From positions 33,857,448-33,921,447 of the forward strand of contig OZ022510.1 in NCBI GenBank assembly GCA_963989385.1: a stretch of 64,000 bases of DNA, in the 5' to 3' direction. Positions 22,538 through 34,909 of this stretch are shown in pieces. Position 1 is the stretch's first letter. The number at the start of each line of letters is the position of its first letter. Source of the DNA: Ctena decussata. Lineage: Eukaryota; Mollusca; Bivalvia; Lucinida; Lucinidae. The notes under the pieces are model-generated. The model did no database searches and had not been told where the DNA came from. It saw nothing but the letters and a program-made list of their open reading frames with translations. The position numbers and the translations under genes were made by a program.

Positions 22538-22685
22538 TTGCCACAAAGTTGGCATGAGCGACTACAAGTCGGTCTTGAAATATCCAACACTTACCAACCA
22601 CTGTATCCATTCTGGGTAACCTTCTTCTCACCAGTGCTTGTGGTTAGCCATGCAAGCACAGTGAAAGAGATTTTGAAAACCACAG
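22538..22685 (+). CDS. CYP4F-like: P450 exon 2, version a
   Basis: It is preceded by GTTTTCAG and followed by GTTTGT. Its 148 nt run phase 0 to phase 1 and give 49 residues starting LPQSWHERLQVGLEISN and ending VSHASTVKEILKTT plus the first base of a split codon that joins exon 3 (giving Glu). This region corresponds to helix A, the first beta strands and helix B. It is the closest relative of version b. With four other versions in tandem it is a candidate mutually exclusive exon. Confidence 0.9.
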
Positions 22686-23421
22686 GTTTGTGTTTGGTTG
22701 AAACTAACAGTGCATTTATACATACATCTTATGTATTGGGACCTAACGGCCTAGCATGTGAACCATTTGGTTTAATACCATAAATTATGTATGTATTGGG
22801 ACACCTACATTATATTAGTGGATTAATATGTATGGGTAAACTGCTACATTTTTTCGGAGGTGACCTCTGGGGCTTCCCGTTTTCTTACATGAGCGCTGAA
22901 ACCTATCCGAAAAAAAGGTCTACTTTTAAAGGAAAGAATTTGCTCCAAGGGAAGCAAATTCTTTTCTTTAAGAGTTGACCCCCATAGAGAAGGGAAGCAA
23001 AAAATGAAAGTGGCAGAGTTGCTTCCCTTAAAAGTGTACCCATTTGCCTTTTCTTATGGTAATTGTGATATTTTATAAATAACCTAAATTTCTGTAAAAA
23101 TTCTAAATATTGGGACACCAAAAATAATTACCATTATTGTCCTAAACTTGGAACAGTTTGGTTTTACAGTGCAGTGATGTGTCCAAAAATGCAAATGGGA
23201 TGGCAAATAGTGTAAACCATGATCAGACTCTCCTTGAGGAGCAGTCTGATCTGGGTTTACATTATGTGCTCAGACCTACATGTAACTGTCCCAATATATA
23301 GTGGTTTTACTGTAAACTGCAGCCTCACAAAATATTCGCATAGCCAACTAACTGTCGGTTGCTATGGTTACATGTATAATCCATCATACACCCACCACTA
23401 GCGCTTATACAATGTTTTCAG

Positions 23422-23569
23422 TTGCCAGAAAGTTGGCATGAGAGGTTGAAGGTTACTCTTGAAATATCCAACACTTATCAACCACTGTATCCATTCTGGA
23501 TTACCATCCTCTCTCCCATGCTTGTGGTTAACCGTGCAAGCACATTGAAGGAGGTTTTGAAAACCACAG
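23422..23569 (+). CDS. CYP4F-like: P450 exon 2, version b
   Basis: GTTTTCAG precedes and GTTTGT follows; 148 nt, phase 0 to 1. It begins LPESWHERLKVTLEISN and ends VNRASTLKEVLKTT. It differs from version a at about nine residues, mostly conservative (V/I, F/L), with TFFSPV replaced by TILSPM. The close match and 0.9-kb spacing point to a fairly recent tandem duplication. The frame stays open past the donor for a while but without P450 similarity. Confidence 0.9.
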
Positions 23570-23825
23570 GTTTGTCTGAAAAAATTAGCGAAGATTCTGA
23601 TCTGGCTGCAGCTACCATATTGTGCAGGTTGATCAAAATCTTCTGGTTGCATGTGCCATATTGCATCTTTCAGTACTGGTGTTTAGTTAAATTTTTATTA
23701 TGAACAGAAATACTGTGAATAACAAAAGTTTTATTTTGCATAACTTGTTCTGTATTTCTTCTAATAAACATGCGGTGGGCTTTGCATTTCACAGGCCGAA
23801 TAAATGGCAAGCTTGAGAAAACATC

Positions 23826-24072
23826 TGGGCCCAGTTGTTCAAAGCATTATTAGCTTAAATTAGTTGTTAGGGAAGGTTTCATTAAGTCTTACTGTACTCA
23901 TGAAATCAGTTAATTGAGGTAACATTTTTGCTGAAAATATTAGAGAGGCTTTTGCATCGCAAAAGTTCCTCATATTTTTTTCAGCAAAAATGGCAGTGTT
24001 TTTGCGTACCATACATTTGAAATTTTAGCGTCTCATTAAATAACGACGTCATTTGTTTTGAACTAGTGGACT
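23826..24072. repeat. Short element with CTGGGCCCAGTTGTTCAAAG end
   Basis: The left end matches the 18865 inverted repeat. The right end, TTTTGAACTAGTGGACTCCC, is a weak mirror. An internal hairpin (GCTGAAAATATTAGAGAGGC / CTCATATTTTTTTCAGC) lies at about 23930-23985. Confidence 0.45.
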
Positions 24073-24101
24073 CCCAAGGAATAATTTACAAGTGTTGGAA
24101 G

Positions 24102-32744: not shown

Positions 32745-33505
32745 GTTTAAAAGCATAGTCATCCTATGGTCAACCATGGTTGGTAATTCTGACCATAGGC
32801 AAAAGCATAGTCAAACCATGGTTTGTAATTTTGACCATAGTCAGAAGCATAGTCAAACCATGGTCTACCATGATAGGAGTACTACAAATCAAGTATCTAC
32901 TGCAACCAATGTCCTTCTAAAGGCGATGAAAATTTGTTACGGTCAACTGTCAGATCAAATATTCCGCTGAAAAACTGACTCCTTTTTATTTAATTATAAC
33001 TGTATTAGAACCGCTCTGTTAAGGTCGCGGTAACTAGATTTGTGACGTCAGAGCCACACTGTACTCTGTAAACCTCGCGCTAACAAAGTGACCGCCGTGG
33101 AAGTCGTTAATAATGTAGCTGACAGGTACCGTTAACGATAAATTTTGTGACTAGGATCAACTGAGCCGACGTCTATGAAGAAATGACTTTGATCGACTGT
33201 CTTTTTATTATTTTGAGATAACGGAACGTTTCTGAACCTGCTCTTACAACGACAAGTTGCAGTAGTTGATTGACGCGTAGTAAATGTGACCATGGTCAAA
33301 TGTATGGTTAGTCATGGTCATATAAAAAACATGGTCAGCATGGTCTGGTCATATAAAAAGCATTGTCAGCATGGTATTATAAAAAAGAATGGGTCACCAT
33401 GATCACTTACCATGGTCCAAAGCATGGTTATTGCCAATGGTTCATCCATGGTTACACCATGTTGGAAATGGAGACCATGGTCCAAAGCATGGTTAACTAT
33501 GGTCA
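32745..33505. repeat. ACCATGGT-rich array split by a 400-bp element
   Basis: Left (32758-32870) and right (33288-33505) flanks are full of CCATGGTC, CATAGTCAAACCATGG and AGCATGGT words. Between them lies a block shared with 44277-44671. The simplest reading is one degenerate tandem array interrupted by an insertion. Confidence 0.65.
32876..33283 (+). mobile_element. Repeat element shared with intron 6 (copy 1)
   Basis: From GTACTAC to CGTAGTA this matches 44277-44671 closely. The first part has an open frame, VSTATNVLLKAMKICYGQL, which ends here at TGA after SDQIFR. The two copies differ mostly at third codon positions in that stretch. Protein identity is not recognised. Confidence 0.65.
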
Positions 33506-33648
33506 ACCTCAGTCATCATTTCATAGGGGTTAGTGACAGTAAACCCAAAGGATCCCTGTGACCCCTTATCTGGAGCACTGACGATGAGACTGTACTGAGC
33601 TGGGAAGCCTGTACAAAGAAATCTGTTGCATTCTTCCCTTTCTTCCAG

Positions 33649-34245
33649 TTTCCAGACAGTCCTAGCAAGAACAAGCTCAAATTTGGTTTAGAGAAGATAA
33701 CAAGTTTCATTAATTTATGATATTTTCCATCACATTAGTCTGCCCATTTTACAGCTTCCATTTGTTTTAGAAAGTTAATCCAAATTGCCGTAAAAATTCT
33801 TAGCATTGAGGCAGAGCAAACAGTGCAGACCCAGCTCAGACAGCTCCTTAAGGAGCTGTCTGATCAGGGACTACTCTGTTTCCAGTTCATCTACATCTTT
33901 AGGATGCAGTACTTCATCGTAAAACCAAAATGTTCCATTTCTAGGACAGTTAAGGTGTCTTTTATGTGTCCCAATCTTGAGAATTTTTAAAGTGCTTCTC
34001 TTTTTTTCGAGTTGTTTGATGGCCAAAATAAGGAAATACTCAAATTTGGTCCAGAGAAGATGACAAGATTTATAGAGTGCTTGATCATATCTTTCATCAT
34101 AGTTATCTCCTCATTTTGCAGCTCAGCCCAGGTCAGTTAACCTGAGTTGCTTCCCTTTTTTCCAGTCCCCTGATGGCTGAAGCAAGAAGAGGCTCAATTA
34201 TGGTCTAGAAGATCTGAATAAGAATCAGTACCTGTATGATGATAT
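33649..34245 (+). pseudogene. Three degenerate half-copies of exon 2
   Basis: Copies start at 33649 (FPDSPSKNKLKFGLEKI, then a stop), 34012 (LFDGQNKEILKFGPEKMTR) and 34166 (SPDG, then TGA, then SKKRLNYGLEDLNKNQYLY). Each follows a pyrimidine tract and AG. None has a usable donor. They are older than the copies at 34327-34758. Confidence 0.75.
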
Positions 34246-34299
34246 CTTCTATCATGGCTACCTCCCCCTATTTCAAAATTCCACTTTTCTGAGGAATTT

Positions 34300-34758
34300 A
34301 ACTCAGATTGCTTCCCTCTCTGCCAGTTGCCTGATGGTCCAAGTGAAAACAGGCTCAAATATGGTCTAGAGAATGTAAAAGAATCAGCGCTTGTCTATCA
34401 TGGTTACCTTCCCTGTTTCCAGCTTCAGTATATATTGGAAATTTAAATCAAGTTGGTTCCCTTTCTTCCAGTTGCCTGATGGTCCAAGTGAAAACAGGCT
34501 CAGATATGGTCTAGAGTATGTAGATAAGTATTGGGCTTATCTATCATGGTTTACTCCCCCTGTTTTCAGCTTCTGTTTATCTCAGAAATTTAACTCAAGT
34601 TGTTTCCCTTTATTCCAGTTGCCTGATGGTCCAAGTGAAAACAGGCTCAAATATGGTCGAGAGAACATGAATAAGAATCAGGGCTTGGTCTATCATGGTT
34701 ACCTCCCTTATTTCCAGCTTCTATTAGAAATTTAACTAGTTGCTTCCCTTTCTTCCAG
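34300..34758 (+). pseudogene. Three near-identical half-copies of exon 2e in tandem
   Basis: Units of 140-147 bp start at 34327, 34472 and 34619. Each holds TTCCCTTTCTTCCAG (or similar) and about 63 nt of the exon (LPDGPSENRLKYGLENV...). Each then runs into the same intron-like CTATCATGGTTACCTCCC spacer instead of the second half of the exon. The full exon 2e begins at 34759 in the same rhythm. No donor is present, so they cannot be exons on their own. Confidence 0.85.
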
Positions 34759-34909
34759 TTGCCTGATGGTCCAAGTGAAAACAGGCTCAAATATGGTCTA
34801 GAGAACGTGAATAAGAATCAGTACATGTATATCTGGTGGAACACTGGTTTGAAACCTTCGGTCACAGTGTGTCATCCTAGTACTGTCAGAACAGCCATGA
34901 AAACTTCTG
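34759..34909 (+). CDS. CYP4F-like: P450 exon 2, version e
   Basis: CTTTCTTCCAG precedes and GTATGT follows; 151 nt, phase 0 to 1, so one codon longer than versions a-d but in the same frame. It begins LPDGPSENRLKYGLENVNKN and ends TVCHPSTVRTAMKTS. It is the most diverged version (YIWWNTGLKPSVTV in place of the FW..P.LV core) and has the best consensus splice sites. It lies nearest to exon 3 and directly behind the half-exon array. Confidence 0.9.

What the first reader, a model, noticed from the sequence alone, without database searches (positions are those of the whole stretch)
22538..34909. Five tandem, interchangeable versions of exon 2 in one CYP4-type P450 gene
Five intact exons (22538, 23422, 27048, 30013, 34759) all encode the same protein segment (helix A to helix B) with different sequences. 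All have AG before and GT after, all enter in phase 0 and leave in phase 1, and four are exactly 148 nt (the fifth is 151). Because each is 3n+1, using none or two shifts the frame; exactly one gives a P450. This is what a mutually exclusive exon cluster looks like (established for genes such as Dscam, inferred here). It would let one locus make five P450s that differ at the entrance of the substrate channel. I know of no described CYP4 gene built this way, but I could not search.
Basis: partly seen in the sequence, partly recalled or inferred. Interest (0 to 1): 0.88.

Follow-up and report, generated by a model that had tools for sequence, protein, structure and literature searches.

The report
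Five-way swappable exon in bivalve P450
A bivalve enzyme gene carries five interchangeable-looking versions of one exon, at the same place in the enzyme where a human relative swaps two exons to change what it acts on, so one gene may make up to five different enzymes.

Summary
Five homologous exon-2 versions (four of 148 nt, one of 151) lie between one exon 1 and one exon 3 of a CYP4 gene. All have AG/GT and phases 0 to 1. Each gives an open P450 when used alone; leaving exon 2 out, or using c plus d, breaks the frame. The six version pairs with measurable dS show dN/dS 0.18-0.26, homology ends near the splice sites, and no other P450 exon is repeated between them. So decayed debris or collapsed genes are unlikely. 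A spliced contig of a near relative (P0001) contains version e and no other. No RNA for a-d was found; that is the main gap.

"No described CYP4 gene" is wrong: human CYP4F3 swaps exons 3 and 4 over residues 67-114, changing substrate preference (PMC12380495), and window exon 2 aligns to 67-114 of human CYP4F12. The model places it on helix A to helix B. New here: five versions, in a mollusc, probably of independent origin, with e looking like the default. A 2010 snail CYP4 paper raised this possibility but had no gene structure (PMC3022543).

The parts
21120..21299 (+). Exon 1, coding part: membrane anchor and the PPGPPRHWLYG segment; an AG acceptor at 21058-21059 suggests a 5' UTR exon further upstream
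   Evidence: sequence; reading frame; tblastn with P0001 90%
22538..22685 (+). Exon 2 version a, 148 nt, phase 0 to 1
23422..23569 (+). Exon 2 version b, 148 nt; 38/49 residues as a; Arg at a position that is His in 96 of 109 homologs
27048..27195 (+). Exon 2 version c, 148 nt
30013..30160 (+). Exon 2 version d, 148 nt; 38/49 residues as c; keeps the near-invariant His-Pro
32610..32699 (-). Inverted half-copy of the acceptor and 5' part of version e; candidate pairing partner of the e acceptor (speculative)
   Evidence: blastn 77.8% over 90 columns; duplex -111.4 kcal/mol against shuffles -36.6, sd 5.5
34169..34681 (+). Four truncated half-copies of version e (34169-34237, 34327-34404, 34472-34531, 34619-34681): acceptor plus 5' part of the exon, no donor end; a weak fifth at 33659-33695
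   Evidence: blastn; 147-bp tandem array 34248-34821
34759..34909 (+). Exon 2 version e, 151 nt; the version found in the spliced contig P0001
37401..37582 (+). Exon 3
41284..41411 (+). Exon 4
42217..42403 (+). Exon 5
44147..44276 (+). Exon 6, ends within the CYP4 I-helix motif EVDTFLFE|GHDTT
46095..46218 (+). Exon 7
61041..61168 (+). Exon 8
61688..61838 (+). Exon 9, ends in PFSAGP(R); the heme-cysteine exon was not found in the window

Best explanation
This is one bivalve CYP4 gene (closest database names include leukotriene-B4 and ultra-long-chain fatty acid omega-hydroxylases) with a cluster of five mutually exclusive versions of exon 2, which encodes helix A, the beta1 hairpin and helix B. 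Each productive mRNA takes exactly one version, because none or two break the reading frame (shown for skip and for c plus d) and would be removed by nonsense-mediated decay (inferred). Version e is probably the default: it has the longest pyrimidine run at its acceptor, keeps the near-invariant His-Pro, and is the one in a relative's spliced contig. Versions a-d have short pyrimidine runs and are probably included only when a splicing factor or an alternative promoter favours them (inferred). Exchanging this segment should change substrate preference among eicosanoids and polyunsaturated fatty acids, as the same segment does in human CYP4F3 (inferred by analogy). The arrangement works like the CYP4F3 exon swap, probably evolved independently and widened from two versions to five.
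For: Five homologous exons with matching phases between single neighbours. dN/dS 0.26 (a-b), 0.18 (c-d), 0.19-0.24 (a or b against c or d). Exon-limited homology: exon plus 11 nt before and 6-7 after, in unrelated introns. P0001, a 1994-nt contig coding 508 residues without introns, is 92% identical in exon 1, 96% to version e and 99% in E3-E9. Exon 2 aligns to human CYP4F12 67-114, the interval exchanged in CYP4F3 (PMC12380495, passages). It is the most variable part of the catalytic domain in 109 homologs: 2.29 bits against 1.13-1.65 for E3-E9. In the exon-2 tree e groups with P0001 and P0002 rather than with a-d, so a-d have probably stayed intact since before that split.
Against: No RNA for a-d was found. 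a, b and c have Ala where 106 of 109 homologs have Pro, and b has Arg where 96 of 109 have His; all five, e included, lack the Gly found in 84 of 107. The a-b dN/dS interval is wide (0.09-0.81). The splice-site argument is mixed: the a-d donor scores higher than 6 of the 8 constitutive donors of this gene, and by pyrimidine fraction a-c (0.60-0.65) overlap E6 and E7 (0.55, 0.60). P0001 is from a relative or divergent allele, not shown to be this species. No regulatory mechanism was established.
Confidence: 0.74

Rival explanations
1. Exon graveyard: only version e (and perhaps d) is used; a, b and c are tandem exon duplicates no longer or never used, on the way to decay.
For: RNA-type evidence only for e; a, b, c lack a Pro present in 106 of 109 homologs and b lacks the His; truncated e copies show that exon pieces do arise and persist here.
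Against: dN/dS 0.18-0.26 in the six measurable pairs; five intact frames and splice dinucleotides at dS 0.43 or more, where a neutral copy would survive substitutions alone in about 14% (a) or 9.5% (c) of simulated cases, indels not counted; exon-limited homology.
Confidence: 0.15
2. Alternative promoters rather than regulated splicing: transcripts starting at different 5' ends are coupled to different exon 2 versions, as reported for CYP4F3.
For: CYP4F3 exon choice is described as controlled by two start sites (PMC3022543, passage; title of Christmas 1999 seen in a reference list). Exon 1 has an acceptor just before its 5' UTR and its first 115 nt recur at 19277-19391. c and d begin with ATG.
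Against: Each version has an acceptor and fits exon 1 in phase; no exon 1 copy lies between versions; a start at the ATG of c or d would lose the membrane anchor.
Confidence: 0.07
3. Assembly artefact or collapsed tandem genes: the versions belong to separate complete P450 genes.
For: Repeat-rich window; CYP4 genes are often clustered (general knowledge).
Against: No remnant of any other P450 exon between the versions, no N, exon 1 and E3-E9 intact in one series, unrelated introns between versions.
Confidence: 0.04

Closest known systems
Human CYP4F3 (CYP4F3A/CYP4F3B, mutually exclusive exons 4 and 3)
   Same: CYP4 gene; alternative homologous exons encoding the same protein segment (residues 67-114 of CYP4F3; exon 2 here aligns to 67-114 of CYP4F12); one used per mRNA in CYP4F3, and this changes substrate preference (PMC12380495, passages).
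   Different: Five versions instead of two; a mollusc; the duplications look bivalve-specific; use of a-d and functional differences are not shown here.
Oyster (Crassostrea virginica) alternative oxidase with duplicated exon 10
   Same: Bivalve enzyme gene with a tandem duplicated exon used alternatively; one copy conserved and dominant, the other changed near functional sites (PMC5589949, abstract).
   Different: Two copies of a last exon; a different enzyme; expression was measured there, not here.
Large mutually exclusive exon clusters (insect Dscam type)
   Same: Array of homologous exons between constant neighbours, one expected per mRNA, double inclusion breaks the frame (Dscam features recalled; NMD cases in human MXEs, PMC5740500, passages).
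   Different: Enzyme rather than receptor; fewer versions; no docking/selector pairing was established here.

Membership tests
Cytochrome P450 family 4 (CYP4) | P450 fold and domain | tested here: met
   PF00067 E 1.1e-103 (isoform d); model of the relative P0001 matches CYP4B1 structures best, TM 0.87 to the query
Cytochrome P450 family 4 (CYP4) | I-helix motif EVDTF-FEGHDTT (recalled) | tested here: met
   NEVDTFLFEGHDTTAS across exons 6 and 7
Cytochrome P450 family 4 (CYP4) | Heme-binding cysteine segment | not testable with these tools
   That exon was not found in the window; relative P0001 has FSAGPRNCIGQ
Cytochrome P450 subfamily CYP4F | Closer to CYP4F than to other CYP4 subfamilies | not tested
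   Several bivalve homologs bear CYP4F-like or CYP4A-like names, but no tree with vertebrate subfamilies was built
Mutually exclusive exon cluster | Tandem homologous exons of matching phase between the same two constant exons | tested here: met
Mutually exclusive exon cluster | None or two versions break the reading frame | tested here: met
   skip and c plus d translated; other pairs follow from lengths
Mutually exclusive exon cluster | RNA shows exactly one version per mRNA, with each version used | tested here: inconclusive
   P0001 contains exactly one version, e; nothing found for a-d
CYP4F3-type exon swap | Exchanged segment is residues 67-114 | tested here: met
   window 61-109 (e: 61-110) align to 67-114 of human CYP4F12; interval for CYP4F3 from PMC12380495
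CYP4F3-type exon swap | The swap changes substrate preference | not testable with these tools
   needs enzyme assays
CYP4F3-type exon swap | Duplication shared by descent with the human gene | tested here: inconclusive
   a-e lie among bivalve homologs (support 82), which points to independent duplication; no human exon pair was in the tree
Dscam-type docking/selector control | One docking site complementary to a site beside every version | tested here: inconclusive
   best docking windows exceed control introns by 1.1 and 2.4 kcal/mol at most; no composition control

The most novel reading that the evidence does not exclude
A single bivalve locus makes five P450s by exchanging the helix A to helix B module: an independent five-way version of the human CYP4F3 switch, with e as the default and a-d as a co-regulated set. 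Pairing between the inverted half-copy (32610-32699) and the e acceptor, or its decoy half-copies, could turn e down so that a-d are used. The exon would then be a repeatedly used exchange point for P450 substrate choice in animals.
Probability: 0.33. Interest if true: 0.78.

Novelty: new variant of a known kind. Interest (0 to 1): 0.62.

Why it matters
P450 diversity is usually explained by gene duplication (general knowledge). An eLife paper on another enzyme calls a clear specificity switch by a single splice event rare and names CYP4F3 as the most notable other example (PMC7434440, passage). A five-way array at the same exon in a mollusc would suggest that this module is an exchangeable specificity cassette used more than once in animals, would give five natural variants in one constant scaffold for mapping substrate access, and would answer a question left open for mollusc CYP4 genes in 2010 (PMC3022543, passages). 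It also means that bivalve P450 counts and exposure studies that use one gene model per locus could miss isoform switching.

Tried and rejected
Collapsed or decayed whole genes: rejected, no other P450 exon hit between the versions (elsewhere in the window two weak hits at E 0.01-0.04, to exon 1 at 8792 and exon 4 at 15808, and the exon 1 scrap at 19336). Chance exons: rejected by homology, although open AG-148-GT frames are not rare (9 of 70). Dscam-like docking/selector: two candidate docking introns scanned against four control introns; best windows -20.2 and -22.4 (upstream sites) and -19.5 and -25.0 (downstream sites) against control bests -21.3 and -22.6 kcal/mol, not corrected for base composition; inconclusive. 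RNA for a-d: region search with version b (3 candidates, none scored) and a five-version alignment search (277 hits, 120 listed; all 120 scanned, 3 with exon-2 likeness above 33 bits, none a near copy of a-d). An old split between e-type and a-d-type exons shared with relatives P0004, P0005, P0007: suggestive only; AU p 0.49 with a-d plus these held together, 0.18 with a-e, P0001 and P0002 held together. Human MXE papers PMC9741552 and PMC5740500 were searched for CYP and P450: no occurrence. Ten paper searches gave no listed title that I recognised as a mollusc P450 exon cluster; several lists were capped. I looked inside seven papers only (passages of six, outline and abstract of one), and the two original CYP4F3 papers were not held.

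Rows dropped: conservation used 109 of 120 homologs (length 480-545); the exon-2 tree had 61 rows (56 of the first 60 homologs plus five versions), the small one 20 rows and the E3-E9 tree 32 rows (31 of the first 32 homologs plus the window); the structure alignment had 48 of 120. One codon of version e was left out for dN/dS. Donor scores use a frequency table from memory; its exon 1 row used an acceptor one base off.
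Full report
What is there. I built the gene around them: exon 1 coding 21120-21299, then one version, then E3 37401-37582, E4 41284-41411, E5 42217-42403, E6 44147-44276, E7 46095-46218, E8 61041-61168, E9 61688-61838. Each of the five products is open for 452 (a-d) or 453 (e) codons up to PFSAGP; the heme-cysteine exon was not found in the window and presumably lies beyond its end. The product without exon 2, and the product with c plus d, shift frame and meet early stops; other pairs follow from lengths of 3n+1. 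The protein is a P450 (PF00067, E 1.1e-103), its nearest solved relatives by sequence are CYP4B1 structures, and it carries the CYP4 motif EVDTFLFEGHDTT (motif recalled).

Not chance, probably not debris. a and b agree at 38 of 49 residues, c and d at 38, a or b against c or d at 25-28, e against the others at 17-21. Homology of a with b runs from 22527 to 22691 and of c with d from 27037 to 27202: the exon, 11 nt before it and 6-7 after; further out, ungapped identity falls to chance level. dN/dS is 0.26 for a-b (bootstrap 0.09-0.81), 0.18 for c-d (0.07-0.45) and 0.19-0.24 for a or b against c or d; comparisons with e are saturated at synonymous sites, so no ratio is given. In a substitution-only simulation at half the observed dS, a neutral copy stays open with both splice dinucleotides in 14% (a) or 9.5% (c) of runs. 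A tblastn of every other exon finds one full copy each of exon 1 and E3-E9; the other hits up to E 0.05 are a 19-codon scrap of exon 1 at 19336 and two weak matches at 8792 and 15808, all upstream of the gene and none between the versions. So only exon 2 was multiplied, and there is no sign of separate genes.

RNA-type evidence. The best database match, P0001 (source lgn, contig of 1994 nt, 508 residues), is 92% identical in exon 1, 96% to version e and 99% in E3-E9. A 1994-nt contig coding for segments spread over more than 40 kb here must come from spliced RNA (inference); it belongs to a close relative or a divergent allele and contains e and no other version. P0002 (80% identical to the isoform d query overall) also carries an e-like segment (72%). 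I found nothing for a-d: a search restricted to the region of version b gave no scored hit, and of the 120 listed hits (of 277) to a five-version alignment, three resemble exon 2 above 33 bits and none is a near copy of a-d. The database is clustered at 90%, and isoforms differing only in exon 2 would vanish into P0001's cluster of four members, so this silence is weak evidence.

Age. On 49 columns a-d form one clade (SH-aLRT 99; 95/92 in the 20-row tree), while e groups with P0001 and P0002 and then with the Meretrix and Ruditapes proteins P0003 and P0006. If so, the split between e and a-d is older than the split from P0002's gene (87% identical in E3-E9), and a-d have stayed intact since. 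All versions lie among homologs P0001-P0007 (support 82), which points to duplication within bivalves. The trees are short, the AU tests reject neither alternative grouping tried (p 0.18 and 0.49), and no human exon pair was included, so independence from the human case is likely but not shown.

What the exon encodes. The AlphaFold2 model of P0001 (mean pLDDT 92.3, pTM 0.91) gives helix A 66-79, strands 83-87 and 93-97, and helix B 100-107 within exon 2e, residues 61-110 (element names are mine); its best structural matches are CYP4B1 (6c93, 5t6q; TM 0.87 to the query). Across 109 of 120 homologs exon 2 is the most variable part of the catalytic domain: mean entropy 2.29 bits, 4 of 49 positions under 1 bit, against 1.13-1.65 bits for E3-E9; only exon 1, with the membrane anchor, varies more (2.57). 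The exon stops before the B-C loop, so it does not carry classical SRS1 (recalled); an effect on substrate would come through the access channel and the packing of helix A and the beta1 sheet (inference).

Comparison with what is known. Human CYP4F3 makes CYP4F3A with exon 4 and CYP4F3B with exon 3; they differ only in residues 67-114 (27% identical), and this changes Km for LTB4 (0.68 against 20.6 uM) and arachidonic acid (185.6 against 22 uM), with use in monocytes or in liver and kidney (PMC12380495, passages); SLU7 is needed for exon 3 in liver (PMC9658179, passages). Window residues 61-109 align to 67-114 of human CYP4F12 (P0145). So the bivalve array sits at the same segment as the human swap. 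Among molluscs, oyster AOX uses either copy of a duplicated exon 10 (PMC5589949, abstract); a 2010 study of snail CYP4 found LTB4 hydroxylase activity for two expressed CYP4BL enzymes and raised CYP4F3-like splicing, but lacked gene structures (PMC3022543, passages). Ten paper searches gave no listed title that I recognised as a mollusc P450 of this kind.

How it probably works. One-of-five choice is enforced at least by frame: other products would carry early stops and should be decayed (inferred). e has a 14-nt pyrimidine run before its AG; a-d have 3-5 and E3-E9 have 6-12. By pyrimidine fraction the contrast is smaller: a-c 0.60-0.65, d 0.45, e 0.85, E3-E9 0.55-0.85. All four a-d share the donor gtttgt, two points below the e donor on a recalled table, but above 6 of the 8 constitutive donors of this gene, so the donors do not argue for weakness. 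I take e as default and a-d as regulated, with moderate confidence. Upstream of e lie four clear half-copies of its acceptor and 5' part (147-bp array) and an inverted half-copy at 32610-32699 that could pair with the e acceptor at -111 kcal/mol (shuffles -36.6, sd 5.5) or with three of the half-copies at -88 to -101; three of 1000 random window pieces reached -94 or lower, their positions were not printed and they may be the same repeat. A hairpin that hides e, with decoys competing for it, is a testable idea, no more. A docking/selector system was not established. Promoter choice as in CYP4F3 remains possible: exon 1 has an acceptor before its 5' UTR, and 115 nt of its start recur at 19277-19391.

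Results against. a, b and c have Ala at a position that is Pro in 106 of 109 homologs, b has Arg where 96 of 109 have His, and all five lack a Gly present in 84 of 107. This fits specialisation, as in the novel copy of oyster AOX, but also early decay. The a-b interval for dN/dS is wide. No transcript of the window species itself was available, and the own-genome search did not complete in eleven tries.

Verdict. It is a new variant of a known kind (CYP4F3), notable for number of versions, animal group and the likely independent use of the same exon.

Noticed in passing
19277-19391: A 99% copy of the 5' UTR and first 19 codons of exon 1 (21061-21175), about 1.8 kb upstream, which then runs into a stop; a possible second 5' end or a recent partial duplication.
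   Followed up: partly
33633-34830 and 32142-32699: Half-exon-e repeats in both orientations: a 147-bp tandem array (34248-34821) and inverted copies upstream in the same intron.
   Followed up: partly
25300-25882 and 27581-29104: A 29-bp minisatellite (about 20 copies) in the b-c intron and a 168-bp tandem array (9.5 copies) in the c-d intron.
   Followed up: no
35300-36232, 36461-36706, 29613-29816, 26873-26939: Palindromic repeats, some of one family, in several introns between and after the versions; they could pair with each other, but similar sequence is also seen at other places in the window (reading).
   Followed up: no
20773-20846 (+) and 11855-11926 (-): tRNA-like sequences without a normal anticodon; the one at 20773 reads like the head of a tRNA-derived SINE, with similar sequence near 38030-38260 and 45190-45460 (reading).
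   Followed up: no
3605-4765 (+): 386-residue open frame with a reverse transcriptase domain (PF00078, E 3.9e-15), probably a LINE fragment.
   Followed up: partly
P0130, P0133: Predicted proteins (one Tegillarca, one unnamed) in which exon-2-like and exon-3-like segments are joined through extra residues that look like retained intron; this suggests the exon 2/exon 3 boundary is shared with other bivalves.
   Followed up: no
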